From Hemileia vastatrix (taxonomy: Eukaryota; Basidiomycota; Pucciniomycetes; Pucciniales; Zaghouaniaceae): DNA of 64,000 nt. The notes under the pieces are model-generated. The model made no database searches. It was not told where the DNA came from and saw only the letters and a list, made by a program, of their open reading frames with translations. The DNA lies in assembly GCA_030280995.1 (NCBI GenBank), contig JASXTE010000007.1, forward strand, positions 5,006,001 through 5,070,000. The letters run 5' to 3'. Made by a program: the position numbers and the translations under genes. Within the stretch, counting starts at the first letter, position 1. Every line of letters begins with the position of its first letter. Below are positions 8,810-50,877 of this stretch, piece by piece.

Positions 8810-8984
8810 TGAGATGAGAAATAGAGGAATGAAATGGAGGAATTGAATATATTTGAGGGATGTTTGAGGAGAGGTTAAAAAGGATATGAGTGATGAATGA
8901 AGAAAAACACTGACAAAATATCTGATTTCAGAAAATATGGGATTTCATGTTGAGCTGGTGAAAGAAAACCAATGAGCCATCCAA

Positions 8985-9639
8985 AAAAAAGAGAAGCGCT
9001 TCCCCGTTTTCTAGAACCAAGGCACGGGGTCTGTGTGATGTTGGGAGGCCTGCCTAGAGGCGGCCAGACCACCCTGAAGCCAGAAAACCACCAAAAACCT
9101 CCAATAAAGCCCAAGGTACTTGGAAAAATCTACCATGACCACTAAAACCCTTAAATCAAAAAATTAAGCTATGACAACATTGTGACATAAAATATAGAGC
9201 CAAATTAGCTCTACTTTATGGTAATAAGCACTTAACCCTAAGACTTAAGGTTAGCCCTTAAAACACAAAAAACAAAATAAAACAGCTATCTTTTAGAAAT
9301 GAAAAATGAGTAAATGACCCCTTAAAACTTGGAATATGAAAAATATCAACAGAGATCAAATGTAGAAAAAAACCAGTGCTATTCAATGGTAGTTTTCACA
9401 TACTTGTAGTCTCAATATTCACTGAATGAACCCAGAAAAACACTTAATTATTCAACCAATGCCAATTAAGACATACCAAAACAATTCCTAACAGAGCAAA
9501 AAAGTTGTCTTCCAATGTTGGAAGACCACACCGTAAATTCAAAAAAAAAATGAATCACATCAAACAAAAATACCAAGCCAAGTGAATAAAGTATAAAAAG
9601 TGGACATTTGGAGAATATTAAAACAAAAAATTAAATAGA
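8985..9639. other. Unassigned insertion-like stretch in Harbinger A
   Basis: Harbinger B has no counterpart for this stretch. It holds a small GC-rich patch with GGCGGCC-type words (9030-9075), similar in composition to patches in element 4 at 60,570-60,640 and 62,835-62,885. The rest is AT-rich. No coding region was found. Confidence 0.35.
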
Positions 9640-10892
9640 TTGTGTGCCAAAATGGTGGAGGGTGATTGGCATCAAGACAGAGGGTATGCCGGTTGAATGA
9701 ATGTTTTGTCATTCAAGGGATGGGAGAGCTGGTCCTGGTTCAGGATCCTCTTCTTTATAAAGATCATTCCACTCATCTTTTAAATCAGCTAGGATATTGT
9801 GGAGTATAATGCAAGTCATAATCCAATGATTTGCAGTTTTGATCTCCAATTATTTTTGAAATTGGATTCTAAGCTCTGAAAGACTAGAAAATCATCCCTT
9901 TAAAATACCTATAGCATGTTCAATATTTACTCTTGATTGGGCAAGGTGATAATTAAATTTAGTTTTAGGGTCATTTTCTAAGGTTGCACCATGGAAAGCA
10001 GGTATAATTTACTTCCTACTTGCATATGCTGAGTCTTCAAGGAGGTACTGAGATTTGTCAAAGTATGAGTCTGAGGTTTGAGAAATCCTCATTCTTTGGA
10101 AGACAGAAGAGTCATGACATGATCCAGGGAAGCCACTGTGAAAAGCGATAAATTTTTATTGACATTGCATATAAGTTGAACGGCAATAGAGTATTTAGAA
10201 GGAAGATAAAAAGTTAGTTCATGAATGATGATATATTGGAGAAGATTTTGAATAAACCTTTTTTTGTGATCAAAATAATGGTTCCCATCATGAGCAGGCT
10301 TTTGACTCAAAGGTATAGTTGTGCAATCAACAAAACCTACACAGCCAGTGAAACCTTTGGCTTGCATTACTTGAGAGGATTCAAGTCCCTGTTCTGGAGT
10401 TGGCCAAGCAAGTGTTTGAGACTTGAAGGAAAGGATAGCAATCATACAGCGCTTATTATATAATATCACCATACCATATCCTATGTTAAATAGATTATCT
10501 AAACATCTTACAGCAGCACCATTTCCATTTGAGACAAAGCGACATAGTGTAACAGCAAGTTGAATGGCAGTATTACGCTGTTTGTTATGGGAACTGTTAT
10601 GGTAGATGGGATGTTCAGAGATGATTTGATAAAGTTTGAAGAAAGAATCTGGAGAAGTTCTAAACAGTTGAGTGAAGTTTAGTTGAGGAATGTTAAGAAT
10701 AGAGCGGAGATCATATTGGGGATCATGATAAAGATTTGGCCCCTTGGCAATGAGGTAACACTTTTTGGAAAGAAAACACAAATAGGCTATAGAATCTTCC
10801 AAATAAGAGTCAGATTTATAGTAGAGAACTAAAAGTAAAGTGATAGAATTCATAGTGGAGTGAAGTAGCTGTCTAGTAGAGAGGTTCTTCAT
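9640..10892 (-). pseudogene. PIF/Harbinger DDE transposase (element A), decayed
   Basis: The minus strand encodes an HARBI1-like DDE transposase. The ATG at 10,892 opens a frame with the family's helix-turn-helix region (SNGNGAAVRCLDNLF) and the first catalytic Asp in GFVDCT. The expected intron near 10,210-10,258 is read through because the acceptor reads AA where the relatives have AG. The second exon then holds the second Asp (LEDSAY) and the Glu region (RVNIEHAIGILKG), but with several in-frame stops. The C-terminus ends near 9640 in a motif shared with elements B and C. It cannot encode an active enzyme. Element C has the best copy. Confidence 0.8.
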
Positions 10893-11069
10893 TGTTTTTT
10901 GTAGTATAGGTTGTTGGTAGAAGGTTTAGGTGATGAGTGGGAAGTGGGAATTCACAGCCAAATGTGCAGTTGGAGTGTGTAGATAGAAAAAAACTTAAGT
11001 GTTAATCACCAAAATTAAGTAGAATACACCACAGGAAATCTAGGGTTGAATTGCTAGCAATCCCCTCTC

Positions 11070-11499: not shown

Positions 11500-14400
11500 A
11501 TTGCTTGGAAAGACACTTTCAAAATTAATACTGACCATAATACACAAGTATGAAACCTTGGCATCTATCCAATAAAAGATTTTCCTTCTGATAAATGAAT
11601 TTTTCTCAGTTACTCCCTGCTAAAAAGTGTCCTTGTGAGGTTTGTATGACCTTCAGGGGGGTAATTTGGCCACATCAAACTACTTCTATTTCCATGATTG
11701 ACCAAAACATAATCCTCATTTCCATCTAAAGAGATGATCTCATCTGACTGTGGCTGATCAAAGGGGTCCACCACAAGTTTAGCCAAAATTTTGGTGAACA
11801 CTTTTTTGATGGATAGTGACTTACTGGTGCTTTCCGAAATTGTCCACGTGAAGTTAGGCTAAACTTCAGGAGGATAAATTTATTATGAATACCACATTAA
11901 CTGAGGAATACTTTTGCCCTAGCTACTCTGAATCATAAAAGTGTCCAACTGAGGTTTAGCCATAATTCAGGTAGACACTTTTGGAAAGGAACAGTCTGAT
12001 GGGTTTAATTTCTATATATGGCAATAAGTATCAGTTTTTTATCAACATGGAACTAGAATTAATTTAATATGGCCAAGTGTCCACCTGAAGTTTGGCCAAA
12101 ATACAGGTGGAAATTTTTATGAGGATTACTTGATGAAATGAAGAAGACTTGCAATTACTTTCCATCATAAAATTTTCAAACTTAAGTTTATCAAAAATTG
12201 TGATGACACTTTTTCCAGATCCGGTCATATGGGATCAACTCTCTATATGGCAATGAGAATCAATTTTTAGTCAATAATGGCATTAGAAGTAATTTGATAT
12301 GGACAAACTTTCCACCTGATTTTTGGCCAAAAATAAGTTGGAAATGTTTATGAGGAATACTAGATTAACTAATGAAGACTTTCACCCTACCACTGTCCAT
12401 CATAAAAGTGTCCAACAGAAGAATTCTCAAACTTGTGGTTGACACCTTTGGCCTGGTCCAGCCATATGGGATCAATTCTGCATATGGAAATGAGGTTTTA
12501 ATTTGGTCAATCATGGTACTAGAAGTAATTTGATATAGACAATGTGTCCAACTAAATATTGGAAAAAAATCAGTTGAAAACTTCATTTAGTTTTTCAAAA
12601 AATCAAATTAAGTACAATTTTATTCCTGATGATGCCCATTTTATCCAACACCTCTTCTGAGCCTTGAAAGTAGGCATTTAGCTTGAATTTTTAATTTCAT
12701 ATCAAATCCCTTTTATTCAACCTATTTCTTTTTATCCCTTTTTTTTCTTTTAGATATCAATTAATTTTATTTAAAACAAATCATTTTCATAATTTTTTAC
12801 CTGTATTTAATAAAATTATTAAAGGTTTAACATCACCCTGTAAGCATTTGGAACATGTTTTTTTGCTATACTAAAAAAAATAATAATATACTGGTGACAA
12901 AAAATTGATCAAATGATAAAATATTAATAAAACAGAAAGATCAAATACCAGTGGATATGTTTTAAAAAAATACCAGTTGCACTGAAGAGGAGCTGGACCC
13001 TAGATACTCACCATCAAAAAAGTGTCCACACAAGTTTGGCCAAACTTGTGCTGGACACTTTTGGTCAGGTGCAGTCATATGAGATCAATTCTCACCATGG
13101 AAATGAAAAAAATTATTTGATAAAAAACTTCTCTAGAAGTAGTTTTACATAGCCAAATTTTCTACCTAGAGTTCATCCAAACCACAGGTGCACAATTTTT
13201 TATCTTTAAAAAAAAGTCAATTTAGTACAATTTATCCCTGATGTCTCTCCTTTGCTTCAACACCTCTACTGGCCTTTGATAGTAAGAATATTACTTGGAT
13301 TTCTTTTTTCATATTTGATCCCTTTAACTTAATTTTTTATTCCTAATATTTCTTTTGGATATCAATTAATAATTTTTAAAATAAACTATTTTCATATTTT
13401 TATACATTTATTTAATAATATTATAAATGGTGTAACATCACCTGGTATGCATTTGCCACATGAGTTTTTTCTATACTTATAAAATTAATAATATAATGGC
13501 AACCAAAAATTGATCAAATGATATTTATGATTGAGGAAAAAAGATAAAATACCAGTAGACATGTTTGTAAGAAATACTAGATGAACTGAAGAAAAATTCT
13601 ACCCTAGCTACTCTCCATCATAAAAGTTTCCAGCACAAGTTCGGCCGAACTTGTGCTGGACACTTATGGTCAGGTGCAGTCAGATGGGAGCAATTCTCTC
13701 TATCGAAATGAAGATAAATTTTTGATAAAAAGTTACACTAGAAGTAGTTTGATATGGCAAAATTTTCATGCTGAAGTTTTGGTAAAGCTCAAGTGGATTT
13801 TTTTTTTATTTTTACAAAAAAGAAAATTTTGTACAAGTTTAGCCCTGATTGTGCTAATTTGATTCAACATCTCTTTTTTCTGTTTATGGCAGGAATTTAA
13901 CTTGGATTTTAATTTTCATCTTTGATTTCTTTTATTTTACTTTATTCCTCTCATATTGCTTTTGGGTAGAAGTTTATTTTTTGTAAAATAAATCATTTTC
14001 ATATTTTTTTACCTTTCTTTAATAATATTATAAAAGGTGTAACATCACCCAGTATTCATTTGGCACACAAGTTTTTGCTATACTGATAATATTAATAATA
14101 GAATGGTGACAAAAAATTAATCAATTGATAAATATGAGTGAGGCACAAAGATTTAATAACAGTGGACATGTTTATAAGAAATTCCAGATGATTTAAAATG
14201 ACTTTCACCCTGGCTACTCTCCATGATAAAAGTGTCCAGCACAAGTTTGGCCAAACTTGTGCTGGACACTTTTGGTTGCATGCCGTCAGATGCAATCAAT
14301 TCTTTTTATGGAAATGAGACTGAATGATCAGTCCATCATTGCACTGAAAGTAGTTTTATATGGAAAAATTGTCCCCCGGAAGTTTTTCAAAACCTAAGGT

Positions 14401-17400
14401 AGACAATTTTTTACTTTGGTAAAAATTAAATTTGATCCACGTTAATCTAGGATGGTGCCCATTTTTTCTGAAGCCTCTACTGGCTCATGATAGCAGAAAT
14501 TATACTTAATATTTTTATTTCATGTTTGATCTCTTTAATTTTAATTTTACCCTTTTATTTATCCTTTAGCTTTCAAATATAAATTTTTTTTGGTAAAACT
14601 GATAACTTTAACATTTTTTTATATTTATTATATAATATTATTAAAGTTGTAAAATCACACAGTGTACATTCAGTACACATGTTTTTTCTATACTAAAAAC
14701 ATTAATAATATAATGGTGACTAAAAAATAATCAAATAATAAATATGGATGACACAGAAAGATCAAATACCCATAGACATTTTTAAAATGAATATAAGATT
14801 AACTGAAGAAGACTTGCACCCTAGCTACTCTCCATCATAAAAGTGTCCAGCACAAGTTCAGCTGAGCTTTTGCTGGACACTTTTGGTTGCATGCAGTCAG
14901 ATGGGATAAATTTACTCAATGGAAGTTAAAATGAATTTTTTCTCAATCATTGCACAAGAAGTAGTCTTATACTGCTATACTATCCTTCTGATTTTTTTGA
15001 AAACCTCAGGTGGACACTTTTATTAATTTAAAAAAAATGAAAATATATTCCAAATCTAGAACTGGTGGTGAAATTTTGGTCTGAAAACTCAAATTTTCTT
15101 TGATGGCAGAAATTTTATTTGAATGTTTAATTTCATATTTAATCACTTTTATTTTACTTTTTTATTCCTCTTTTTGCTTTCAAATATCAATTTATTTATT
15201 GTAAAACTAATACTTTTCATATTTTTTTTACTTTTATTTAATAAGATTATTAAAGATGTAGCATCTCCCAATATGCATTTGGCTTATAATTTTTTTCAAT
15301 ACTAATAACAGTAATAGTATAATGGTGAAAAACAATGAATCAAATGATAAATATGAATGACACAGAAAGATAATATACAAGTGGATTTGTTTATAAGGAA
15401 TACCTGATGAACTGAAGAAGACCTGCACCCTAGATACTCACCATCATAAAAGTGTCCAGCATAAGTTCGGCCAAACTTGTGCTGGACACTTTTGGTTGCA
15501 TGCAGTCAGATGGGATAAATTTACTCTATGGAAATGAAAATGACATTTTGCTCAATCATTGCAAAATAAGTAGTTTGATATTGCCAAATTGTCCTCCTGA
15601 TGATTTTTTAAAACTTATCAGGACACTTTCTTTGGTTTAACAAAAAAGAAAATATAGTCCAATTTTAGCCCTGGTGGTGCACATTTGATCTAAAACCTCT
15701 ACTTGTTATTAATAGTGGGAATTTTCCTTAGATTTATTTTTCTTATTTTATCCCTTTTATTTTACTTTTTTATTTCTCATATTGCTTTGGATATCAATTT
15801 TTAATTTTTAAAATAATTAATTTTCATACTCTTATACCTTTGATTAATAATATATGATTAAAGGTGGAACACCACCTGGTATGCATTTTTCACACAAGTT
15901 ATTACTATAGTAATAAAATTAATAATATAATGATGACAAAAAATTAATCAAATGGTAAATTTAAATGACACAGAAAGATCAAATACCAGTGTATATGTTT
16001 ATAAGTAATCCCTTTTGAGTTTAAGAAGATTTGCTGTATGCCTACTCTCAATTATAAAAGTGTCCAGCACAAGTTCGGCCAATCTTGTGCTGGACACTTT
16101 TGGTTGCATGAAGTCATATGATATAAATTCTCTCTATGGCAATGAAAATGATATTTCACTGAATTATTGAAGTAAAGAATGTTTAATATTTTAAAATTGT
16201 CCCCTGGAAGTCTCTCCAAACCTCAGCTCAAAATTTGTTAGCTATACATAAAAGTAAGTTTAGACCAAGTCTATACCTAGGGGTCCCCAACTGTCCCAAC
16301 ACCACTTCTGGCTCTTGATAGTAAAATTTTACTTGTATTTTTCATTTTGTATTTGATCCCATTTATTTTCATTTTACTTTTCTATTACTCTTTTAAATTT
16401 TAAATATCAATTTATTTTTTTAAAAACTAAACATATTCATATTTTAACTTTATATAATAATATTATTAAAGGTGTAACATCACCAATTTTGCATTTGGCA
16501 TGCAGGTTTTTGCTATACTAGAAACATTAATAATATATATGGTGACAAAAAATTAATTATAAGATAAATATGAATGATAAAAAAAGTTAAAAAAACAATA
16601 GAAATGTGAAAAAAAAAACTGATGTACTGAGAAACACTTCCACCCTAGCTACTCTCCATCATAAAAGTGTCCAGCACAAGTTCAGCCGAACTTGTGCTGG
16701 ACACTTTTGTTCAGGTGCAGTCAGATGGGATCAATTCTCTCTGTGGTAATTAAATTAAAAAAAATGCTAAATAATTACATTAGAATTAGTTTGGTATGGC
16801 TGAATTATACACCTTGAGTTTTCCTAAACCTCAGGTGAAAAATTTTTTATCTTTAAAAAAAATTAAATTTTATCAAATTTAGCCCTGATGGCACCCATTT
16901 GTTTCAACACCTCTACTGGCTCTTGAAGGCAGGAATTTTCCTTGAATTTTTCTTTTTCATATTTGATCTCTTTTACTTTACTTTTTTATCACTCATGTTA
17001 CATTTGGATATTAATTTATAATTTTGGAAAAAAAATCATTTTCATATTTTTTTTAACATTTTTTAATAATATTATAAAAGGTGTAATATAACATGGCATG
17101 AATTTGGGGCACAAGTTTTTTCTATACTAATAAAATTAATAATATTCTAATGACAAAAAATTAATCAGATAATAAAATATGAATAACAAAGAAAGATCAA
17201 ATACCAGTTGACATGTTTTAAAAAAATAACAGTTGCACTGAAGAAGGCCTGCACCCTAGCTACTCTCCATCATAAAAGTGTCCAGCACAAGTTTGGCCGA
17301 ACTTGTGCTGGACACTTTCGGTCAGGTGCAGTCAGATGGGATCAATTCTCTCTATGGCAATGAAAAAAAATTATTTGATAATAAAATTCACTAGATGTAG

Positions 17401-19620
17401 TTTGATATAGCTGAATTATCCACCTAGAGTTCATCCAAACCACAGGTACACAATTTTTTATCTTTAAAAAACAGTCAATTTAGTACAATTTATCCCTGAT
17501 GGGTCTCATTTGCTTCAACATCTCTACTGGCCTTTGATATTAGGAATAATACTTGGATTTCTTTTTTCATATTTGATACCTTTAACTTAATTTTTTATTC
17601 CTCATATTGCTTTTGGATATCAATTAATAATTTTTAAAATAAATTATTTTAATATTTTTATACATTTATTTAATAATATTATAAAAGGTGTAACATCACT
17701 CAGTATACATTTGGCACACAATTTTTTGCTATACTTATATAATTAATAATATAATTAAGACAAAAAATTAATCAAACAATATGTATGAGTGAGGCACAAA
17801 GATAAAATACCAGTAGACATGTTTGTAAGAAATACCAGATGAACTGAAGAAAAATTCTAACCCAGCCACTCTCCATCATGGAAGTGTCCAGCACATGTTC
17901 GGCAGAACTTGTGCGGGACACTTTTTGTCATGTGCAGTCAGATGGGATCAATTCTCTGTATGGAAACAAAAAATTTTTTTTATCAAACTTCACCAGAAGT
18001 ACTTTGGTTTAGCTGAATCATTCACCTGCTGTTCTGCCCAATATCAGGTGTATAATTTTTTATCTTTAAAGAAAAGGTCACTTATTACAATAAAGCCCTG
18101 ATGGCTCTTATTTGCTTTAACACCTCTACTGGCTCTTGATAGCAGGAATTTTACTAGTATTTTTTTCATATTTTAACTGTTTGACTTTTATTTTACTCTT
18201 TTATTCCTCTTTTTACGTTTAAATTCTATTTAATTTTTGTAAAACTATTCCTTTCCATATTAATTTACGTCTATTTTAAAAAATTATTGAAGGTATAACT
18301 TCACATGGTATGCATTTGGAACACAAGTTTTTGCTATACTAATGAAATTAATAATATAATGGTGATAAAATATTAATCGGATGATAAATATGAAAGATAC
18401 AGACTGATCAAATCCAGTAGACATGTTTATGAGAAATACAAGATGAAGGAACTGAAGAAAATTTCCACCCAAGCTACTCTCCATCATAAAAGTGTCCAGC
18501 ACAAGTTCGGCCGAACTTGTGCTGGACACTTTTGGTCATGTGCAGTCAGATGTGATCAATTCTCTCTATGGCAACAAAAAAACATTTTTTATTAAACTTC
18601 ACTACAAGTAGTTTTGATTAGCTGAATCATCCACCTGTTGTTCTTCCCAACCTCAGGTGTATAATTTTTTATTTTTATAAAAAAAGGTCACTTATTAAAA
18701 TTTAGCCCTGATGGCTCCCATTTGTTTCAACACTTCTACTGGCTCTTGAGAGCAAGAATTTTACTAGTATTGTGTTTTTCATAATTGATCTCTTTGAGAT
18801 TAATTTTACTTTTTTATTTCTCTATTTTTTTAATATCTATTTAAATTATTGTAAAGCTAATCATTTTCATATTTTTTTACTTTTATTTCATAATATTATA
18901 AAAGGTGTAACATCAACTGGTATGCATTTGGCACATGAGTTTTTTCTATACTTATAATATTAATAATATAATGGTGACAATAAATTAATCAAATGATATA
19001 TATGAGTGAGGCACAAAGATCAAGTACCAATGGACATGTTTATAAGAAAGACCAGATTAACTGAAGAAAAATTCTTCCCTAGCTACTCTCCGTCATAAAT
19101 GTGTCCAGCACAAGTTTGGCCAAACTTGTGCTGGACACTTTTGGTCACATGCAGTCTGGTGTGATCGATTCTCTCTCAATCATTGCACTAGAAGTTGTTT
19201 GATATGGCTAAATGGTTCTGCTGAAGTTTTGTTAAACCTCAGATTGGCACTTTTTTGTTTTTCAAAAAAGCAATTATAGTTCAAGTTTAGTGCCACTGGT
19301 GAGTGTTCACGCCAACATTTCTACTTGCTCTTGATGGCAGTAAATTTATTTTAATTTTTTATTTCATATTTGCTTCCTTTAATTTTACCTTTTTATCCCT
19401 CATATTGCTTTTGTATATCAATTTATTTTTTGTAAAACAAATCATTTTCATATTTTTTTACCTTTATTTAATAATATTATAAAAGGTGTAACATCACCCG
19501 GTATGCGTTGGGCACACAAGTTTTTGCTATACTTATAATATTAATAACATAATGGTGACAAAAAATCAATCAAATGATAAATATGAGTGAGGCACAAAGG
19601 TCAAATACCAATTAATCAAT
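11500..19620 (+). repeat. Satellite-like tandem array, unit about 608 bp, each unit with a 38-bp palindrome
   Basis: Eleven units can be placed by their central palindrome (GTGTCCAGCACAAGTTCGG and its complement). The palindromes start at 13,022, 13,626, 14,232, 14,843, 15,452, 16,060, 16,667, 17,278, 17,884, 18,492 and 19,101, giving steps of 604-611 bp. A degenerate unit starts at 12,408, and shorter, more diverged ones lie near 11,600, 11,940 and 12,170, spaced roughly 230-340 bp apart. Each unit follows the same order: CTACTCTCCATCATAAAA, palindrome, a CAGTCAGATGGGATCAATTCT block, then an AT-rich half. Small open frames are chance products. No gene was found. Confidence 0.9.
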
Positions 19621-20457
19621 AGTTCTTTTTAATATTATAAAATTTTTGATTAAATAAAATGGTAATAATGAATTATATTTTTCATCCACGATTCCACTCT
19701 AATGATTCCCACTGCACAAAAAGGGTTCACTCAGTCCTTTCTTTACTGCTTGTGCATATATTTTATTACCCACAGTACCACAATTTTTTGTAGTGATTAT
19801 CCCACATCCGATTCAGGAATATTTTTGAACAATATAAGTTTTTTTTACAAAAGACCTTATCATATCCAATATCCCACAAAAAATACAACCTGTTTTTGTA
19901 TTAAAACCCATTAATTATTAAGAAATTGTTAAAATAATTAGATTAGACCCTGGAACAGCTAGATCCATACCAACCAACCTAAAGTCTTTTCAATATTGAA
20001 AACAATTAAATAAAATTATGATATCATACTAAATTAGGGGCACCAACCATAATTCAGCACTTCTCATTTGCTCTGCTACAAAATAGGGGGTGTCAGTTCT
20101 GGCAAATCCGCACTTAAATTAAGTGCGGATTTCAAACCAAATCAGCACTTACAAATCAGCACTTAAATTTTGCAAAAAAGTCACTTATTTCAAAAAAGGG
20201 TGTCAGTTATGACCTCAAATCAGCACTTTTTTCCCGTTTTTTTTCACAACCACATTTTGGCCACAAAACATCCCTTCCTTTCTTACCCCATCCCTGTCAC
20301 ATGTGACACACTGACCTTCCTCGCTACCTACCCATCAATCCTCGGCACACACCCCTTCCTGACATTTTCAATATTTTGACCAGGCATGTTTACATTCTTT
20401 TTTACTTATTTCTTCTACTTTTTAATCTTTTTTCTTGTTATGTGCCAGTTTCATAAT

Positions 20458-20548
20458 GCCTCCCAGACATTCCAAATCTCAAAAGGTAACTCAAAAATCT
20501 GCTTCGTCACAAAAGTCTCCTCGTAAAGCAAGGATTACATAGAAAAAA
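20458..20548 (+). pseudogene. First-exon remnant of the Harbinger SANT/Myb-like gene (element C)
   Basis: The ATG at 20,458 begins MPPRHSKSQKVTQ and continues basic and Ser-rich for about 28 codons to a stop at TAG. Harbinger B begins its SANT/Myb-like gene with a similar MPRTTTASQKVTQ at 43,716. The DNA-binding domain is missing. Parts of this exon are copied twice more downstream (near 20,791 and 21,130), so internal duplication and deletion have destroyed the gene. Confidence 0.45.
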
Positions 20549-21522
20549 AATCAGTGACTTTTTCTATTACTTACAACTGTTTTTACAGAATTGAAAACTA
20601 TGTTTCAGCTAATATTTTATGGAAGTGAACTCTGTTCTTCGCCCGAAGAACAGAGTTCATCCTCCTATTTTCACATTCTGTTTGCACCAATCTCCAACAT
20701 TTTCAATATTTTGACCAGACATGTTTACATTCTTTTTTACTTATTTCTTCTACTTTTTAATCTTTTTTCTTGTTATGTGCCAGTTTCATAATGCCTCCCA
20801 GACATTCCAAATCTCAAAGGGTAACTCAAAAATCTGCTTCGTCACAAAAGTCTCCTTGTAAAGCAAGGATTACATATAAAAAAAATCAGTGACTTTCTCT
20901 ATTACTTACAACTGTTTTTACAGAATTGAAAACTATGTTTCAGCTAATATTTTATGGAAGTGAACTCTGTTCTTCGCCCGAAGAACAGAGTTCATCCTCC
21001 TATTTTCACATTCTGTTTGCACCAATCTCCATCCCTTTCAATTCTATCAACACATGCTTGTCTTCCCTCCCCATGCCTTTCGCTATCCTCCCAGCCCCAT
21101 TGTATGCCATCCTCTTTTAAAGGTAATTCAAAAATCTGCTTCGTCACAAAAGTCTCCTCGTAAAGCAAGGATTACATATAAAAAAAATCAGTGACTTTTT
21201 CTATTACTTACAACTGTTTTTACAGAATTGAAAACTATGTTTCAGCTAATATTTTATGGAAGTGAACTCTGTTCTTCGCCCGAAGAACAGAGTTCATCCT
21301 CCTATTTTCACACTCTGTTTGCACCAATCTCCATCCCTTTCAATTCTATCAACACATGCTTGTCTTCCCTCCCCATGCCTTTCGCTATCCTCCCAGCCCC
21401 ATTGTATGCCATCCTCTTTTGATCCCCATTTCACCCCTCTCAACCTCTCCCAGACCCTTTTCTTCATTCAAAATGCCTCGGAACCCTTAATCTTCCCTTC
21501 CAACTCTTTCCCAACCTTTGAG
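20493..21522 (+). repeat. Triplicated ~300-335-bp segment in Harbinger C
   Basis: The same segment recurs three times, beginning near 20,493, 20,828 and 21,130. It runs through a T-rich tract, then a perfect hairpin with 15-bp arms (GAACTCTGTTCTTCG), then a C/T-rich stretch. The third copy is longest. A nearly identical stretch occurs at 52,653-53,000 inside a CACYA-ended element, which shows exchange between two transposon types. Confidence 0.85.
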
Positions 21523-21709
21523 TGACTGAAAAAATATGCGTTTGCTGAAAATATGCGATTTCATGTTGAGTTGATGAAAGAAAACACAGAGAGAAAAAAA
21601 AATAAGACTTTAACAGCAAATTCAAAAACCAAAAAAATATGCAAAAAAATTTACCATTCTCAGTGAATAATACATGCAAATTGATAATTTGAAGAGAAAG
21701 AGAAAAAAA

Positions 21710-22708
21710 TTAAAATTGCGTTGAAAAATGTTGGAGTGTTATTGGAAGGATTTTCGCCCTTATACTAGTTGATTGAGAAATAGAAGTGTTGGATATAGTC
21801 GGAGGTGAATCAACTTGTTCATCTTCATACAGCTCTAACCATTGATCTTTGAGGTCAGCAAGTAGGTTATGAAGTATAGTGCAACACAGAATCCAGTTGA
21901 TCACCGCCTCCATTTCAGATTTATTTCTAAGAGGACTTCTTAATTCCCTTAAACTAGAAAAACGGCCTTTCAAGATTCCAATAGAATGTTCAATACGGAC
22001 TCTTGACTTTGCCAAATGATTGTTGAATTTGGCATTTTGACTGTCTTCTGAAGCTGCTCCCCGAAAAGCAGGAAGTACATACTTTCCATTCACATAAGCA
22101 GAATCTGCAAGAAGATACTGATTTTCATCAAAGAATTTTTCAGGTTCATTTGAAATATGCATTCTTTGGAAGACGTAGGAGTCATGACATGAGCCAGGAT
22201 AGCCAGCAAAGAATGATATAAATTTTTTGTTTACGTCACATATAAGCTGAACGTTAATTGAATATCTATAAAGAAGATATATTTGTTTGTGTTAGTTTCA
22301 AGGAGGATGAAAGGAGTTAAAAATAATCTACCTCTTTTTACGGTCAAAGTAATTGTTTCCACCTTGAGCAGGTTTCTGGCTCAAAGGAATAGTAGTACCA
22401 TCAACAAAACCAATACATCCTGGAAAGCCCTCTGCTTGCATAACCTGAGATGATTCAAGTCGCTCTTCTTTTGTTGGCCAGGTGAGAAGTTGAGATTCCA
22501 AGGAGTTGATGGCAGTGATACATTGTTTGGTATAAGTGTTAACTGAACCATACCCTAAATCAAAGACATTTTCTAAACGTTTCAAAGCGGCTCCATTACC
22601 ATTTGAACCCAAACGACATAGTGTGATGGCCAATTGAATTGTACGATGTTTTGAGTTATGAAGTGTTATTCTGCGGAGTGCTGCGTATGAATGGGATGAT
22701 GCTGACAA
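21710..22708 (-). CDS. PIF/Harbinger DDE transposase (element C), catalytic core intact, N-terminus short
   Basis: This HARBI1-like nuclease/transposase would cut and move element C and related MITEs in the nucleus. Exon 1 (22,332-22,708) carries the helix-turn-helix region (GSNGNGAALKRLENVF) and the first catalytic Asp in GFVDGTTIPLSQKP. A 66-bp intron (22,266-22,331, GTAGAT...TATAG) follows. Exon 2 (21,710-22,265) holds the second Asp (LLADSAY) and the Glu (RVRIEHSIGILKGRF), with no stop seen. The DDE triad is therefore complete. The N-terminus starts about 100 residues later than in element B and begins with an unrelated stretch, so the protein is probably truncated. The neighbouring Myb-like partner is destroyed. 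Whether the gene is expressed cannot be told. Confidence 0.8.
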
Positions 22709-22915
22709 ATCAGTGAAATGGGACTTGATGGTGAAATCAGCACTTTTGGTTGAGAAAGTGCGGATTTGAGTGAAATAAGTGACTTATTTCATTTTGAAAT
22801 CCACCAGTATTGGGGCTAGTGTGTTTTGGAAATCCGCACTTATTTAAGTGCGGATTTGGTCAAATTTAAGTGCGGATTTGTAAGTGCGGATTTGCCAGAA
22901 CTGACACCCCCTAAT

Positions 22916-24409: not shown

Positions 24410-25454
24410 GACCTTACTATATGCGCTAACTTTGTTAATAACCTCAAGCTTGGCGCCTTTATATCACTACCATGCTTAAATTTTCCTAAATTAGTTAAGT
24501 ATTTACCCATGCAAGTTCCTGCCATGGACTGCATGTAGTTACCCCAGTTCTCACATCCTTTTTGGATTTCTCAGTGGGTTTTCAGTCAATATTGGTTGTT
24601 TTTGCATGAGGATTTCATGTAGTATATTATCATAATTATCCCCATCATTTCTACTGTTTACCCACCTTAATATTGAGTGACATTTAGAGTTATTTTTTCT
24701 TTTTTAGTCTTTTATTTTAAGTATTATATGCATATACTCTCTTTTTTTGCTTATTCTTGTATTTTAATTGATTATCCGTATTATTTCAGGATTTTGGCGG
24801 GTGATATCATTAAAATTGTATTATTGTTTATTTCTTATGTTGATGGAAAGTTGTATTGGCTAGAATTAGGTTTCATTTGCTGTCGATTATAATAGTAAAT
24901 CAAGGGGGTAAATTGGAGAATTATTAGGGGGTATCAAAGTTAAAAATCTTCCATGTCAAAATACCTCTTTTCCCACCAAATCAACCATAATTATTTTTTA
25001 AAATATTCCATATTGTGCTCCCACAACACCTTCTTACTGAGAATGAATTTCAATTCTGTGCCTTTCTATTTTTGGTGTGAAATACCTTTTAATTAATTAC
25101 AAATTTTTAACTTTGATACCCCCTATCAGGTATAAAAGGACGGGGTTTTTGGTCTTATTTTTGGCATTCTTTATCAGTAAAATTAAAAACTATAACCCTT
25201 ACAATTACAATACACTTAATTAGTGAATTTATAGTCTTGGAATAGTGTTTGAATTATATTCTCTATTTTCTTACCAATTATAGGATTGTCACCCATATAT
25301 AATTAGTGAGATTTAAATTACTGAGACCCTTATATTAATTTATATTTTAATATTTTTGGATTTGTACTACAGTATTCATATAGGAATATTAAAATCTTCT
25401 AGAAAAATAACTTATCAAGCTGTTCATTTCTCTTTAGTTGAGCTCAGCCTGACA
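24410..25454 (+). mobile_element. LTR family 2, 3' part (plus orientation)
   Basis: This sequence matches the complete solo LTR at 41,680-43,171 over most of its length: a CACTACCATGCTTAAA-type block, CAGGATTTTGGCGGGTGATAT near 24,788, a TATA box (TATAAAAGGA, 25,131-25,140), GGGGTTTTTGGTC, and the end ...AGCCTGACA at 25,454. It differs by holding a 199-bp MITE just upstream of the TATA box. Its 5' part is cut off by the CACYA-ended element. Confidence 0.75.
24926..25124. mobile_element. Harbinger-type MITE, 199 bp
   Basis: Terminal inverted repeats AGGGGGTATCAAAGTTAAAA resemble the ends of Harbingers A-C. The flanks are ATT on the left and ATC on the right, a duplication with one change. A second copy of equal length sits at the same place in another LTR of this family (41,139-41,337), and the solo LTR at 42.8 kb shows the empty site. 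Confidence 0.85.
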
Positions 25455-43171: not shown

Positions 43172-43715
43172 GTTATATTAAATTTATTGTTATATAAATT
43201 ATTTATACATTTAAATTAAGCATAATATATTCTATATTCTACAAATAATGGCGCATTTTTATGTATTTAATAATTATAAATTAATAATTAATTAATTACA
43301 AACATATATTAGGGGGTCTCAAACTTGACCAAATCCGCCACCCAGACACGCCATCAAACATGGCTGATTTGGTACCTGACGTCTCAAACTTGGGGTCAAA
43401 TACGTCCTACTTTAGATCAATTTTTCCAACAACAATTCAGCCCAACTATACATAGATCCCCACAATTCACCGCACAACCCATCTTTCCCCTCCTACTTTT
43501 CCAATAAAAATTTTTATCCATCTTACCCCAGTAAGTTTTACACTTTTCATCCCCTTCTTTCACAACACTTCCTGCTCAGATTTCTATCCTAACATCTTCT
43601 TATTTCTGCTTCAGGATATCTTTTCAAATCCATAAACGTAGTTAGGTTTTTTTATTTATTCAAAAAACTTTTCTTTATTCACAGACTAATATATTTTTCA
43701 TAGTTCTCATTTATC

Positions 43716-44964
43716 ATGCCTCGTACCACAACTGCTTCTCAAAAAGTTACTCAATTGAAAACAGCTGATCTTCAGATCACAATCAACTGGCTAAAAAATA
43801 AATCCAATTTTGAAGCCTGATTTGGTTGTGAAAAGGCTACCCAAGTTTGTCATCCACCTGCATCAAAACTGAGTGGTTATAATCAAATGGCACTGAAATT
43901 AAAATCAAAAACTAAAGGTAAGATGGATTTGACAATGAAGCAAATGAGAGAACAATTTAAAAATTATCAAGGTAAATATAAGAAGGCAAAGATGGCTCCT
44001 TCTTCAACTGGCTTTGGAGTTACTGAAGATGACGAGAAACAAGGTATCACTTCTATTTCTGAAAAACTTGAAACTATGTGTCCTCTTTATCGTCAAATGG
44101 ATGAGCTCTTTGGACAAAGACCCGATGTCAATCCCTTGTACACATCTCAAGCACCTAAACCAGTTCAACCAAATACAAACAATCAAGATTTACCTTTAGA
44201 TCCTTTACTCAGCTCTCCTGAAGATGACAAACCCACCTTACATTCTAATCCTGAGGAGGATGAACCCATCATCGTAAGCTTCAATTACTTTGGATATTTT
44301 TTTGGCATTCATAATCTACTCTATTTATCATTCAGACTCAACACCCATCAAATCCTTCAAATTTTAAGGAACTATCCGATGATTAAAGGTTAGAAGATGA
44401 GGAACCAGTTCCATAAGGTAGTAATAGAAGAAAGAGAAGGGCTTCTAGCAGTTTTTTCACACCTCAGTCTACATCAAAGGTTCTTTTTTCCGCCTATGGG
44501 GAGCTTGTTAACAAACGTGAACAAGGTATTTTTTTTTTGGATTTACTAATGTAGTTTTTATAGCTAACCCCTTTTTATATAAAGATAAACTTATAGCAGA
44601 CAAGGAAAAAGCTAATGTAGAGATTATGAAGATAGAGTCTCTTGAAAAATCTGCAGAAAGACAATTATTATTTAAGGAAAAAAAGTGGTTTCATTTACAG
44701 GAAAAGGAAGAACGTAGTATGCAAATTGAGAGGGATTGTTTAGACTCGGAGAGGGAGAAGATAAGATTTCAAAGGGAGGATGATGAAAAGTTCAGAGATA
44801 ATCAGTTTCAATTAGAAAATTATCAATTTCAGTTACAAGCAGAAGAATTCAAAATGAAGCAAGTGGATATGGAAAAATCCAGAAACTATAGTTTTTTGAC
44901 TGCATGTGTTAATACCAAGAAATCAAATGACAAAATTAAAGAGTTACTTAGTTTTATGAAATAA
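43716..44964 (+). pseudogene. SANT/Myb-like DNA-binding partner protein of Harbinger B, decayed
   Basis: Harbinger elements typically encode a Myb/SANT-like protein that brings the transposase to the DNA ends. The ATG at 43,716 leads a frame with the domain's typical pieces: WLKNKSNFEA, SGYNQMALKLKSKT, MRNQF-like MREQFKNYQGKYKKAK, TGFG. A TGA at 43,818-43,820 replaces a residue, probably the Trp of the domain. Exon 1 ends at 44,273 (GTAAGC), the acceptor is near 44,335, and exon 2 has further stops. The last exon (about 44,600-44,964) encodes a charged coiled coil (EKSAERQLLFKEKK...), as in other Harbinger partners. It is inactive as it stands. Confidence 0.75.
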
Positions 44965-45099
44965 AATATAAATTTTAAATTTCTATTAGCCTATTTCTTT
45001 CTTAATTTCTTCTTTTATATCTACATGAAAGTCTTCTAGCAATTCTTCTATCAATTATTTTTATTTCTTTTTCTTAAGATGAAATGTAATTGATATGAA

Positions 45100-45660
45100 A
45101 TATTAAATTTTAGCAAATGTGTTGATACCTTCATACTTTATAGAATCTGAGTATGCGTGGGATGCATGGAAATTTAACTCATTTGTTCAACTAGGGATTT
45201 TCAATGGCTTCATTAACCCCTATCCACAAGATTCTTAAATTCACAAATATTTTTTGACTAATTATAAAAATTTGGCAATACCCTCCCTTGCATTTTACTG
45301 GGGTATGGATCACCATTTTTTGATTGAAAAAAAAATTGGCAATACCCCCCCCTGTGTTTTATTAAAGTAGGGGGGATGGATCACCATTTTTTGATTGCAA
45401 AAAAAACAAAATGGCAATACCCTCCCCTGTGTTTTATTAAAGTAGGGTTCTAGATTGCCAAATTTTATTCTCATTTCACAAATTAACATATAAACCAATA
45501 ATATGAGTTAAAGAACAAAGTTAAACAATGGCCATTCATATACCTAAATGTAGCATATATGAACCCCATGAAAAAATTAATTTTCATGATAACCTTTTAC
45601 ACAACAGCATGGTCAACAGGCCCATTAATTTAAGTAAGTTTTTTATCTCATATGATTGGT
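45100..45660. other. Interval between the two convergent Harbinger B genes
   Basis: AT-rich; contains three diverged direct repeats of GGCAATACCCYCCCTTG...TTTTATTAAAGTAGGG...ATCACCATTTTTTGATTG type between 45,270 and 45,460. No gene seen. Confidence 0.6.
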
Positions 45661-45703
45661 TATACATTAATTCATGAAATAAGAATAAAACTTAACAATC
45701 TTT

Positions 45704-47009
45704 TTAGATCCCATACTTTCTTTTTCTATCTAATATTTTATTTTTTACATTACCTTCTTCTCTTACCTTTTTAACCCAATCTACCAAAGTTCTATTGATT
45801 TGAAAGGAACAACCAAAGTGGGTGAACTGATCACAAGATTCCAAACCAGGAGGTGCTTTAGTCGTTTGATGATTATGGGAGTATGAATTCCAAATCATTT
45901 CGATAATTCCATTTCCAGTCCCAAAATTGATTATTGTTTGATGATTGGGAAAGTATAAGCCATGACCTCTGATGGAAGGAAAAGATGAAGGGATTGGTTT
46001 TCCAGTTTTGGGATCGATATAGGAGAATAATCCAAAGGTAAGAGAGTTGATATCTTTATCATCCAAATGAATTTTATTATGAAATCCACCAAAAGTTATT
46101 ACAACATTAGAAGCAAAAACATCTTCATCGTTAAGTTGATTCCATTCTTCTTCTGTCCAATTGGGGATTCCAAATTTCTTGGCCAGCTTATTATTAATTT
46201 AAAAGCACGTATACAAAGTTTCTTTACTTGTCCAATTAAAAAAGTATTGAAGGATTTTAATGAGTCCCATCTTTGAAGATCTTCTTCCATTTCTTTAGGA
46301 CTAAGATTTCTAAGTAATGAGTAAATTCCTATATAAAATAAAAATAAAATAATATTTTAAAAAATAAGAAGATTAATAAAAAATTTGGAAAAATTGGAAA
46401 AAAACTTACCCATTAAAAATCCTCCATCAAATCCAGGTTTCCAACCAATTCCATACATATGACCACCAGAAAGATTTTTATTTCTTAAAGGTTGGCAAGC
46501 TAATGCCATTTGATATAAAGTAGATATGAGAATTGATAATTTTTCAAATGTTTCATTTGGAATTTCATGAAAAGAATGAACACAAAAAATAAATTGGGCT
46601 TCAAAAATATTTGAAATAACAGTGACAAGTTGATCAGATCCTGATTTTGGTAGAAATTTTGTACTTTCTGGTAGATCTTCTGGATATTTTTTTTTCTTTT
46701 TTAAGATAGTTGTTTTGAAGAGAGTAATATTGCTTAAACTTCCAAAAAAACTTTCAAGTAATCGTTTTCTTCTAAAAATATTTTTGAATTAAAGGATAAT
46801 GAAGATTTGTTATTATTTGATTAATTCAAATTGATTTTTGAAGATGAATCATTTTTTGATGTTTGAGATGATAATGAAGAAAGTGATGATGATGATAAAG
46901 AAGAAAGTGAAGAAAGTGATGAGGAAGACAAGGAAGAAAGAGAAGAAAGTGATGATGATGATAGTGAAGAAATATTTTCTTTTTCTGGTAACTCCAAATT
47001 TTCTTTCAT
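45704..47009 (-). pseudogene. Tet-like 2OG-Fe(II) oxygenase-type gene inside Harbinger B, one main frameshift
   Basis: The minus strand starts at 47,009 with a Ser-rich, acidic N-terminus (SSLSSSSLSSLSS). It continues with a basic patch, a helical domain ending MYGIGWKPGFDGGFLMG, an intron (about 46,331-46,410, GTAAGT...TATAG) and a C-terminal domain. The latter has FHNKIHLDDKD, TFGLFSYIDPKTG, GHGLYFPN, IIEMIWNS, HNHQTTKAP and THFGCSFQINRTLV. An HxD, a later His before QTT and a distal Arg match the iron and 2-oxoglutarate ligands of double-stranded beta-helix dioxygenases. The pattern resembles the fungal Tet-like family expanded in rusts. A frameshift near 46,193 and disorder near 46,800 break the frame. 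Assignment is by motif recognition only; that it oxidises 5-methylcytosine is inference. Confidence 0.6.
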
Positions 47010-47039
47010 TTTTATCTAAAGAAAAGAAATAAAATAAAT

Positions 47040-47489
47040 AAAAAGAAATATATTATAAAATAGAAGAGACATACCAAAAGTTATTCCAAAAACACCAAAA
47101 AGAAGAACCAAAAAAAAAAAAAAATTCAAATTCTAATAGCCAAAAGTTGAACTGAAAACGCCAAAAAAAAGATCCAAAAAAAAGTTTTTTTTTTCAAGTT
47201 TCAATAGCCAAAAGTTGAGCTGAAAACGCCAAAAAAAAGATCCAATTTTTTTTTTTTTTTTTCAAGTTCCAAAAACCAAAAGTTGAACTGAAAACGCCAA
47301 AAAAAAAATCCCCCCCCAAAAAAAAAATTTTTTTTTAAGTCCCAATAGGAAAAAGTAGATCCTAAAACCCCCAAAAAAATGATCCCAAAAAAAATAATTT
47401 TTTTATTTAGTCCCAATAGCCAATTTATTTTTCTTAATTTCTCTTTAAAAAAAATTAAAAAAAAATTAGTATTTTATTGCATAATAAAT
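47040..47489. repeat. Direct repeats of a ~70-bp AT/A-rich unit
   Basis: At least five diverged copies of a unit reading CAAAAGTTGAACTGAAAACGCC followed by A- and T-runs lie between 47,085 and 47,430. Non-coding; it lies upstream of the oxygenase-type gene. Confidence 0.7.
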
Positions 47490-47830
47490 CATCCCACCCC
47501 CCTCATATCCCCCCATACCCGCCTTCTCCCCCCTTTTCCCCCCTTTTCCCCCCTTCCCCTGCCCTTACCACGCCTTTCCCCCCCTTACTTACCGATAACA
47601 AATCGGTAACGATTCGTTATCGAGGATAGCAGGGGGGGCTAGAGGGGTGGTAAGGGGGGAAGAAAGGGGGGGAAAGGGGGGAAAAGGGGGGAAAAGGGGG
47701 AAGAAGGTGGGGAAAGGGGGAAAAGGTGGGGGTAAAAAGGGGGGGAAGAGGGGGGAAAAAGGGGTGGTGAGGGGGTGGAAAGGGTGCTTGAGGGGGGAAA
47801 AGGAGTGGTGAGGGGGGGAAAAAAGAGGGA
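47490..47830. repeat. C-rich arm and G-rich arm around a palindromic centre (Harbinger B)
   Basis: CCCCCCTTTT-type sequence (47,490-47,590) is followed by an inverted-repeat centre (GATAACAAATCGGTAACGAT) and GGGGAAAAGGGG-type sequence to about 47,830, then a (GA)n tract (47,836-47,915). Harbinger A has the same layout at 7740-8360. Proline-rich open frames on the minus strand are compositional. Confidence 0.8.
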
Positions 47831-47878
47831 AACTTGAAACAGAGAGAGAGAGAAAAAAGGGGGAAAGGGGGAAAGCTG

Positions 47879-47916
<38 letters not shown>

Positions 47917-48282
47917 AAGAGAAAAGAGTGAGAAAAAAAACAAACAAAAATCAGTATAACCTTGAAAACCAAAAAATGAAGCACTTACAAAAAAAAAAAC
48001 AAAAAAAAGGAAAAGGAAAAAAAACATCATTAGCAAAGTAGAAATCATAAAAATTGAAAAAATGACTTACCTGGTGAGATGAGTTGAGAAAATAAAAGCA
48101 ACCTAAGAAACAGAGGGATGTTTGAGGAGAGGAGGAAAAGGATATGAGTGATGAATGAAAAAAAAAAACACTGACAAAATATGTGATTTCATGTTGAGCT
48201 GGTGAAGTGAAACAAATGACACACCACAAAATGAGACATTGATAGCAAATTCAAAAAAAAATTCAATATGCAAAAAAAAAAG

Positions 48283-49548
48283 TCAATCTAGTTCTTGAAA
48301 ATGGGAAAGGGTGATAGGTAGTATTTTAGAATGCATGGTATTGGATTGGGAGGATGAAGAAGTATTATGAGATTCAATAGGAGGAGGTGGTTCAGGAATT
48401 TCATCTTCATAGAGTTCGCTCCATTCATCTTTCAAATTTGCAAGGAGATTGTGCAATATGAGACAAGCTTTAATCCACTGTATGACAACCTTCATTTCAT
48501 TTTCATTCCCTAATTGAGATCTCATTTCTCTTAGAGAAGAAAAACATACTTTCAGTATACCAATTGAATGCTCAATTCTGAAACGGGATTTGGCAAGATG
48601 ATTATTGAATCTTGATCTTTCACTTTATTCATCACCAGTACCACGAAAAGCTGGGATGACATAAATTACACTTTGATAAGCAGAGTCCGCAAGAAGATGA
48701 TGGTTCTCATCAAAAAAAATTGAGGTTGTTGAGAAATAGACATTTGTTGAAATACTGAGGAATCATGACAAGCCCCAGGGAAGCCAGCATGGAAAGCAAT
48801 AAATTTCTTGTTGATATCACAAACCAGTTGAAGAGCAATAGAATATCTAAAGGTTCCAAAAAGGAAAAGATTAGAGTGAGGTTAAATTGAGAAAGTGTAA
48901 ATGAGATAATCCAAACCTTTTTTTACGATCAAAATAGTTATTTCCATCTGTAGCAGGTTTTTGACTTAATGGGATGGTGGTACCATCAACAAAGCCAATT
49001 CAACCAGGAAAGCCTTCTTTTTGCATCACCTGAGAGTTCTCCAAGCGTTCATTCTTATTGGTCCATGTCAAAAGTTGATCTTCAAGGGAAAGAATCGCAG
49101 TAATTACACGCTTTGTATAAAGGTGAACGGTTCCTTCACTAATCTGAAAGAGGTTTTCAAGATGGGTTAAAGCAGTACCATTACCATTTGAACCAAAACG
49201 ACACAGTGCAACAGAGAGTTGAATAGCAGGATCTCTTTGTGGACAACAAGAATTGTTCTGGAAAACTGAGTGATCTCTTATCAATTCATGTAAGGTGAGA
49301 AATCCAGGCAAAGTTGTACGGAACATTTGTTTAAAGCTAATTTCAGGAATTTTGGAAAGAACATCAAGGTAATATTGTGGTTGGTGTTGTATGGAAGGAG
49401 TTCTGGATACTAGGTAGAAATTATCCAGCATTTCACACATGTAAGCGAAGTCCAGTTCAGCATCAGAATCAGTATCAGAATTAACCAATAGATCAAGGGC
49501 TACAGCGGTAGCAAGGATGTGAAGCTGTTGACGGATTGAAAGTGGCAT
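48283..49548 (-). pseudogene. PIF/Harbinger DDE transposase (element B), full length but broken
   Basis: The ATG at 49,548 gives the longest N-terminus of the three copies. It includes an acidic DTDSDAELDF segment and the helix-turn-helix (GSNGNGTALTHLENLF...SEGTVHLYTKR). A TGA near 48,999 replaces the Cys of FPGCIGFVDGT. The first catalytic Asp follows (GFVDGTTIPLSQKP). A 70-bp intron lies at 48,847-48,916. Exon 2 keeps LLADSAY and FRIEHSIGIL, but a 1-nt loss in a T run near 48,715 and a stop near 48,625 break the frame. Motifs in order and the DDE residues identify the family. Confidence 0.88.
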
Positions 49549-50877
49549 TTTGATGAGCGGTGATGAATATTAAGGGCGAGTGTATGATGAAGGGGCTGCT
49601 TAAGTGGTGGGAAGTCAATTTTTTCACATGTTGAATAATAAGCCCTTAAGAATTAGGTAAAAAAAAAATCTAAGGTGATGGCGTGTCTGTACCTAGTGCT
49701 GACTAATCAAGAAGAAGGAGTGGAGTGTTTTGATGGCTTGTTTTGACCAAAAGATGGTGTCTTTGGGACCAAAGACGCCATCGAAATACACCTGTCCAGG
49801 GCAGGTGTATTTCATTTTTTGATGGTGTGTTTGGTACTTTTTTTGTGGCGTGTTTATGTGGCATATTTGGTCAAGTTTGAGACCCCCTATTATAATTATA
49901 TGAGTAAAATTGACTTATAATGTAATTTAATTAATTAATTAAATTTATATATTAAATAAAACTTTTCATATATTATTAAACAATAATATTGGGCGCTTTT
50001 TTGACCCTTAATTGTGTCAGAAAAATTATTAAATAAATTATAACACTTATTTAATAACATAGTATTAAAATCCCCACTTTAAATTACAAATATCATTAAA
50101 TTAATTATATGTTTCATTTAAACTAACTATTGAATTAATTACATAGTTAAAACAATTAATTAAAATTTCTTTAAACTGGATTGAATTGATTAAATGAATT
50201 TTTGGCATGAAAATAATTCTATTAGTTTTACTTAAACCCTTTACATTTCACTATAATTTCTGTCTTGGATTATTTTACTCATTGTTCTCATGTTTCAAAC
50301 TTACTTGGTTACTAATTATTTTAATTAAGTGCTTTTGGGAAATTATGGTGGGAAAATTAGTTACTTACTCATGGGTTTAGTTGAATGTCTCATGTTTTTC
50401 TCTCAGTCTCCATGTTTTAGTTCTATTCTTTTTAATGTCTAGTTTCATGTTATTCCTTTTTATAATTACTACATTGTGATGCTTCAGAGAGTTCTTTGCC
50501 TATAAAAGGCTTTGGATTATCCCCTGTAGCTGCATCATTTAATTACATGCAACTTTTAACATATTTTTTATATATAACACATTTACTTTATTTTTATTAG
50601 TATTATAATTCTTATTTAAAAGTAAATAATTACTCTAAGGTTGCAGTAAGTCTATTAATAAATATAAATGTGAACCGCGCATTAAAACTTATTAATATAA
50701 TTATTATTCTATTTGAATTGAACCTCCCGTTGTGTCTCTATTCAAGTCATTTTCATTGTATTCCTTTATTTTTCTCTATTAATTTTTTTTAAAGCTACCA
50801 AATCATTATAAAAATCCAATTTATCATTTCCCTATTCTTTTACTTCTTTTTCTCCTTCTTCTAGACAACTGGCCAAT

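What the first reader, a model, noticed from the sequence alone, without database searches (positions are those of the whole stretch)
45704..47009. A Harbinger transposon carries a Tet-like 2OG-Fe(II) oxygenase-type gene
Harbinger elements normally encode a DDE transposase and a Myb/SANT-like protein. Element B has a third gene between them, inside the same terminal repeats and target duplication. Its C-terminal domain shows HLD, a later HNHQTT and a distal Arg in the order of 2OG-Fe(II) dioxygenases, and resembles the Tet-like family of rusts. In basidiomycetes TET/JBP genes have been linked to KDZ-type transposons (established); a link to Harbinger is not something I know of. An element-borne 5mC oxidase could counter silencing of its host element, which is inference.
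Basis: partly seen in the sequence, partly recalled or inferred. Interest (0 to 1): 0.9.

Follow-up and report, generated by a model that had tools for sequence, protein, structure and literature searches.

The report
Rust-type Harbinger transposon carrying TET gene
A jumping-gene family in a large rust-like fungal genome carries, besides its own transposase, a gene related to enzymes that oxidise methylated DNA; this kind of element was described in rusts in 2025, and here it is shown with a different target site and signs that selection kept the gene working.

Summary
Window 43311-49888 is a Harbinger-type DNA transposon with a DDE transposase, a Tet-like 2OG-Fe(II) oxygenase gene (PF20515; window exon 6e-26, a sister copy 8e-33) and a third gene, inside one pair of terminal repeats. 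It is not a one-off: the 9 transposase copies found at 95-100% lie at the same 9 loci as the oxygenase copies, and 6 of 6 sampled copies of a 78-79% subfamily hold oxygenase sequence (fragmentary in some).

The link is not new: Kojima (December 2025, PMC12730594) described TET+ Harbinger elements ("PHISTA") in Puccinia and Austropuccinia. New here: (1) empty sites (4 of 4 aligned) show a 3-bp target duplication with A...T termini, not the TA said to define PHISTA; it fits the ANT site of the Pangu group. (2) The oxygenase is under purifying selection between families (dN/dS 0.09-0.33) and mostly decays within them. (3) Copies show about tenfold CpG-to-TpG excess, so the host probably methylates them, and the enzyme did not protect these old copies. 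(4) In a sister family 13 of 40 scored loci show no oxygenase.

Most likely role: oxidising 5mC on element DNA to escape silencing (inferred; no activity shown).

The parts
43308..43310 (.). left target-site duplication ATT
   Evidence: 3-bp reading shown at paralogous empty sites of a sister copy's insertion
43311..43334 (+). left terminal inverted repeat, 24 bp perfect (longer imperfect repeat inward)
43716..44964 (+). third gene: protein with sub-threshold Myb/SANT-like N-terminal part and a charged, coiled-coil-like C-terminal part (by eye); interrupted here
   Evidence: homologues in Phakopsora and Puccinia
45704..47009 (-). Tet-like 2OG-Fe(II) oxygenase gene (TET), interrupted in this copy
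   Evidence: PF20515 E=6.3e-26 on 45704-46198; 9 of 9 close copies found carry it
46061..46069 (-). HLD (HxD iron-ligand motif)
   Evidence: H and D invariant in 15 of 15 rows
45860..45877 (-). HNHQTT (distal histidine region)
   Evidence: distal His in 14 of 15 rows
46329..46409 (-). predicted GT-AG intron of the TET gene
   Evidence: sequence; inferred
47497..47733 (.). G-rich/C-rich imperfect inverted repeats between transposase and TET, around the palindrome AACGATTCGTT (47608-47618)
48283..49569 (-). DDE transposase gene (PIF/Harbinger type), interrupted in this copy
   Evidence: DDE_Tnp_4 (6e-22 on a sister copy); 40 best copies listed
49865..49888 (-). right terminal inverted repeat, 24 bp
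49889..49891 (.). right target-site duplication ATT

Best explanation
It is a decayed copy of a three-gene Harbinger-type DNA transposon (transposase, TET-type dioxygenase, DNA-binding-like third protein) that inserts at ANT trinucleotides. The dioxygenase is a true element gene. Most likely it oxidises 5-methylcytosine on element DNA, made by the host's CpG methylation of repeats, and so keeps active copies expressible or mobile before they are silenced and lose their CpGs by deamination. Shown: gene content, ends, target duplication, presence in the close copies, recurrence in related families, purifying selection, CpG hypermutation of copies. Inferred: catalysis, the substrate, host methylation of this element, and the anti-silencing benefit. 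Being part of the element and a TET-family protein is near certain (about 0.97); the confidence below is for the mechanism.
For: PF20515: 6.3e-26 for the window exon, 8e-33 for a sister copy's open exon 2 and 9e-34 for a full-length relative. The 9 oxygenase loci found at 95-100% are at the same places as the 9 transposase loci found at 95-100%. 7 of 9 copies have both ends with the same terminal repeats. Same layout in family F3 (L045); F2 (L047) has TET plus the third gene; F4 has TET exon 1 and a Harbinger transposase together at window 6.7-10.9 kb. dN/dS of TET between families 0.09-0.33 in 9 of 10 pairs (one saturated); 95% 0.21-0.53 for the nearest pair, like the element's own DDE domain at 0.28 (0.17-0.44); within families 0.25-0.97, 7 of 8 pairs at about 0.5 or more. 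CpG sites changed to TpG/CpA in 37% of cells against 4.0% for the GpC control over 7 full copies (80 and 129 sites); 45% against 4.6% over the TET region of 9 copies. CG methylation of young repeats is reported for another rust (PMC8444563, passages).
Against: No enzyme activity or methylation data. No credible sequence match to a solved TET structure, and the single-sequence fold of the window piece failed (pLDDT 36.7). No conserved distal Arg. The enzyme did not keep these old copies free of CpG decay. TET is not in every copy: in family F3, 13 of 40 scored loci show transposase but no TET in the match; at least three of these are among the loci whose transposase is 99% identical to the query, though three loci of that list are TET+. 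In the 84-85% subfamily one copy (L043) has TET, one of four others sampled has a remnant and three have none within 3.7 kb.
Confidence: 0.55

Rival explanations
1. The dioxygenase is active but its useful substrate or product is something else: another modified base (6mA, or 5mC glycerylation as in CMD1), or a mark that guides transposition rather than relieving silencing.
For: TET-family members with other activities exist (CcTET on 6mA, CMD1; read in PMC12730594). No conserved Arg and no close solved relative by sequence here.
Against: Strong CpG-specific decay of the element points to 5mC as the host mark it meets.
Confidence: 0.25
2. Captured passenger: a gene carried along by Harbinger elements without benefit to them.
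For: Copies without TET exist, some with a nearly identical transposase; the window copy is dead.
Against: dN/dS of 0.09-0.33 between families against about 0.5-0.97 in 7 of 8 pairs within families; TET sequence in 9 of 9 and 6 of 6 copies of two subfamilies; open frames of over 300 residues in many other loci.
Confidence: 0.08
3. The gene mainly serves the host (genome-wide demethylation) and is spread by transposons.
For: Very large number of PF20515 matches in this genome (150 of 150 scored above cut-off, 10849 first-look candidates).
Against: The four families looked at sit with Harbinger-type genes; a single-copy host gene was not sought.
Confidence: 0.07

Closest known systems
TET+ Harbinger / PHISTA families of Puccinia and Austropuccinia (Kojima 2025, PMC12730594)
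   Same: Harbinger-type transposase, PU-type TET/JBP dioxygenase gene and a third gene within one element of a rust fungus
   Different: Target duplication here is 3 bp (AWT) with A...T termini, shown by empty sites, not TA; third protein shows weak Myb/SANT resemblance; host genome (748 Mb) does not fit the species named there (sizes of those genomes recalled)
Pangu group of PHIS transposons (Han et al. 2015, PMC4482050)
   Same: ANT target duplication shown by empty sites; termini usually begin AG or GG; DDE transposase plus a second ORF
   Different: No TET gene mentioned for Pangu in the section and passages read; clade membership of this transposase not tested; Kojima places TET+ families near Nuwa instead
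NuwaII group (PMC4482050)
   Same: Transposase plus a second ORF; GG termini; occurs in basidiomycetes; Kojima's tree places TET+ families near or inside Nuwa (weak support)
   Different: Target C|TNA|G, not ANT; no TET gene mentioned in the passages read
TET+ Kyakuja (KDZ) transposons of mushrooms
   Same: DNA transposon carrying a TET/JBP gene
   Different: Different transposase superfamily and AG-type TET (from PMC12730594)

Membership tests
PIF/Harbinger (PHIS) superfamily | DDE_Tnp_4-type transposase | tested here: met
   L040:1711-2307 E=6e-22; window pieces 6.8e-7 and 2e-6
PIF/Harbinger (PHIS) superfamily | second protein with Myb/SANT domain | tested here: inconclusive
   4 of 8 relatives hit PF13837 or PF12776, best 0.0014, all below cut-off; AF2 of a homologue pLDDT 47.7, no fold match; no PDB match
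PHISTA (Kojima 2025) | TA target duplication | tested here: not met
   TA...TA is visible at the ends, but 8 of 8 copies with both ends (7 close, 1 of the 84-85% subfamily) repeat ATT or AAT (chance 0.042 per copy) and 4 of 4 aligned empty sites of one insertion show a 3-bp duplication
PHISTA (Kojima 2025) | TET gene plus third gene without Myb/SANT domain | tested here: inconclusive
   TET and third gene present; weak Myb/SANT hits in relatives
PHISTA (Kojima 2025) | transposase inside the PHISTA clade | not testable with these tools
   reference transposases (Repbase, supplement) not available
Pangu (Han 2015) | ANT target duplication confirmed by empty sites | tested here: met
   ATT or AAT in 8 of 8; 4 of 4 aligned empty sites for one insertion read ACT (3) or ATT (1) once; F3 copy in window flanked by AAT
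Pangu (Han 2015) | termini beginning AG or GG | tested here: met
   AGGGGGTCTC
Pangu (Han 2015) | transposase inside the Pangu clade | not testable with these tools
   no reference set at hand
NuwaII (Han 2015) | C|TNA|G target site | tested here: not met
   targets are AWT
TET/JBP dioxygenase, PU type | Tet-like 2OG-Fe(II) domain | tested here: met
   PF20515 above cut-off
TET/JBP dioxygenase, PU type | HxD...H iron-binding triad | tested here: met
   H and D 15 of 15, distal H 14 of 15 rows of A2
TET/JBP dioxygenase, PU type | 5mC oxidation | not testable with these tools
   needs an assay

The most novel reading that the evidence does not exclude
The TET+ Harbinger lineage of rusts is an ANT-targeting (Pangu/IS5-like) lineage whose TET gene has been kept as a standing third gene through the split of several families, as counter-defence against CpG methylation; the 'TA' duplication used to define PHISTA is what an ANT duplication next to A...T termini looks like when read two bases at a time; and TET-less derivatives live off TET supplied in trans by TET+ copies.
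Probability: 0.35. Interest if true: 0.62.

Novelty: new variant of a known kind. Interest (0 to 1): 0.45.

Why it matters
It adds to the published TET+ Harbinger class a measure of selection on the oxygenase gene (not among the analyses in the sections I read of that paper), a CpG-decay readout of the host pressure it would answer to, and a corrected target site that changes where such elements may belong. A genome with TET+ and TET-less copies of the same family side by side makes the anti-silencing idea directly testable from methylation maps.

Tried and rejected
One-off insertion: rejected. Chance protein match: rejected (PF20515 was found in 0 of 14 control genomes). TA target duplication: rejected by empty sites. 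Distal Arg as a ligand: not supported. Searches of the 5.8-billion protein set with a TET relative gave none scored, perhaps a limit of the word filter. PDB sequence search with the TET profile gave 2 hits of unrelated kinds (0.015 and 1.4), with the third-protein profile none. Structures: P0001 model pLDDT 47.7, no fold match; window TET piece pLDDT 36.7, not used. A CpG comparison with four copies of the repeat that holds the empty sites was not decisive: their CpG is nearly gone (observed/expected 0.04-0.10, against 0.28 for this element) and they are more diverged. No empty site was found for the C531 insertion. Host species not identified.

Full report
What is there. The window (64 kb, GC 33%) is G000:C42:5006001-5070000 of a 747.6-Mb assembly in 791 contigs. 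The element runs from 43311 to 49888. On the plus strand it holds the third gene; on the minus strand the TET gene and, further right, the transposase. Pfam: TET piece 45704-46198, PF20515, E=6.3e-26; transposase pieces, DDE_Tnp_4, 6.8e-7 and 2e-6; the same transposase part open in a sister copy gives 6e-22. In the window copy the TET exons, the transposase and the third gene are all interrupted; 2 of 9 copies have both TET exons open over the tested stretches (157 and 211 residues).

More than chance. The TET gene has 9 copies at 95-100%, and the transposase has 9 at 95-100% at the same 9 places; both lists score only the 40 best candidates but run down to much lower identity. Seven copies show both ends. 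Of the other two, one (C194:30.79 Mb) is broken off just left of TET, with no third gene in the stretch fetched; in the other (C194:3.15 Mb) the left end lies outside the stretch fetched, because of an insertion of about 0.9 kb. A second subfamily (TET 75%, transposase 84-85%, L043) has the same layout and ends. There TET is not always present: of the four other full transposase copies, one had a 49-residue remnant and three had none within the 3.7 kb fetched, one of which has a listed TET place about 14 kb away. Of the 76-79% subfamily I sampled six copies (78-79%); 6 of 6 hold TET sequence, fragmentary in at least two (L056, L060) and split by an insertion in L059. Printed coordinates put a listed TET within 6 kb for 12 of the 40 transposase places; the TET lists are cut at 40, so this is a floor.

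Other TET families in the genome. PF20515 gave 150 of 150 scored places above cut-off out of 10849 first-look candidates. I grouped the 30 loci returned, by similarity, into F1 (this one), F2, F3 and F4. L045 (F3) has transposase, TET, then the third gene in the opposite direction, as in F1. L047 (F2) has TET and the third gene; the transposase side holds a long frame that looks like a retroelement gag by eye. For F4, window 6.7-10.9 kb has a TET first exon and a Harbinger transposase on the same strand; L046 shares the stretch between them and has TET and third-gene pieces, but no transposase match of its own. So the four families examined ride with Harbinger-type genes; I looked at only one or two loci each for F2-F4 beyond the 1.5-kb flanks. 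For F3, 40 loci were scored with a transposase-to-TET query; by my reading, 24 hold the complete TET stretch (19 in one piece, 5 in two), 3 part of it and 13 none. Three of the 13, and three TET+ loci, are in the list of 40 loci whose transposase is 99-100% identical. The window's own F3 copy (20085-22912) also lacks TET.

Target site. Each complete copy reads TA before the first GGGGG (GTGGG in L043) and TA after the last CCCCC, as stated for PHISTA. But 8 of 8 copies with both ends (seven close ones and L043) also repeat ATT (6) or AAT (2) around an A...T terminus, where a random TA/TA pair in this window does so 4.2% of the time. The decisive test is the C19 insertion, which lies in a dispersed repeat (Copia-like by eye). 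Of 40 scored places for its joined flanks, two are the insertion itself and 38 others span the junction by their printed ranges. I aligned the four for which I held letters: 4 of 4 lack the extra 3 bases that the TA reading needs, and read ACT (3) or ATT (1) once at the site. The duplication is therefore 3 bp. Han et al. 2015 (PMC4482050; abstract, passages and the Pangu section read) characterise Pangu by ANT duplications and AG or GG termini. I could not place the transposase in a tree, so I do not file the element as Pangu.

Third protein. Pfam finds Myb/SANT-like domains only below cut-off, in 4 of 8 relatives (PF13837 0.0014, 0.0017, 0.42; PF12776 0.011). Homologues exist in Phakopsora pachyrhizi (52%) and Puccinia striiformis (45%), which with the TET type makes a rust host likely. 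Kojima reports no Myb/SANT domain in the third proteins of PHISTA; the evidence here leans to a diverged one but does not settle it.

Selection and decay. Nei-Gojobori dN/dS for TET: F1 against L043 0.33 (bootstrap 0.21-0.53), F3 against F2 0.09 (0.05-0.15), seven other between-family pairs 0.11-0.31, one not computable because dS is saturated; within families 0.25-0.97, with 7 of 8 pairs at about 0.5 or more. For the same pair of subfamilies the element's own transposase gives 0.28 and 0.53 and the third gene 0.42. Synonymous sites are near saturation in the wider pairs, so those values are rough. Within F1, 26 of 30 C/G positions in CpG context of the TET region show C-to-T changes in some copies (24 in two or more copies, 2 in one) against 26 of 306 other C/G positions. 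Cell by cell, at sites where at least two copies keep the dinucleotide, CpG changed in 45% against 4.6% for GpC, and over the full element in 37% against 4.0% (5982 of 6930 columns kept). F3 and F4 show the same (38% against 6%, 60% against 4%); F2 had only 6 sites (25% against 6%). This is the mark expected of methylated CpG; methylation itself was not measured. TCG was hit more than other CG in F1 (53 of 180 against 19 of 140) and less clearly elsewhere.

How it most likely works. Shown: an element gene, selected while its families were active, in an element whose CpGs decay fast. Inferred: the enzyme oxidises 5mC on the element and delays silencing. The CpG decay says that protection, if any, was temporary or confined to active copies; the TET-less F3 copies say that the gene is not needed in every copy, as a diffusible product in trans would allow. 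That last point is inference and equally fits a dispensable gene.

Compared with what is known. Kojima 2025 (PMC12730594; abstract, methods, sections 3.1 and 3.4, figure legends and part 1 of 2 of the discussion read) already reports TET in Harbinger elements of six rust species with TA duplications, and proposes escape from silencing. So the headline of the finding is known. What differs is the 3-bp ANT-type duplication shown by empty sites, the selection and CpG-decay evidence, and the presence of TET+ and TET-less copies of one family in one large genome. Literature searches behind this.

Noticed in passing
window 20085-22912: A shorter Harbinger-type copy (F3 family, transposase 97% like L045) without a TET gene, flanked by AAT on both sides.
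   Followed up: partly
window about 6723-10925: Another Harbinger-type transposase (49-56% like this one) together with a truncated first exon of an F4-type TET gene.
   Followed up: partly
window 47608-47618 and L045:3354, L045:3414: CpG-bearing palindrome AACGATTCGTT (up to one mismatch) between transposase and TET in 7 of 9 close copies and in the F3 copy L045, where G-rich/C-rich inverted repeats also surround it; not found in the F2, F4 and other loci scanned; 0.2 expected per 64 kb. Possibly a binding or control site.
   Followed up: partly
window 24923-25123 and 41136: Further AWT-A-GGGGGTATCA termini; the first has a loose opposite end about 200 bp on, so perhaps a short non-coding derivative; content not examined.
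   Followed up: no
window 4284-5976: 650-nt inverted repeat, 98% complementary, 393 nt apart.
   Followed up: no
window 13600-19142: Series of 45-nt palindromic repeats (AAAAGTGTCCAGCACAAGTT...) spaced about 610 nt or twice that.
   Followed up: no
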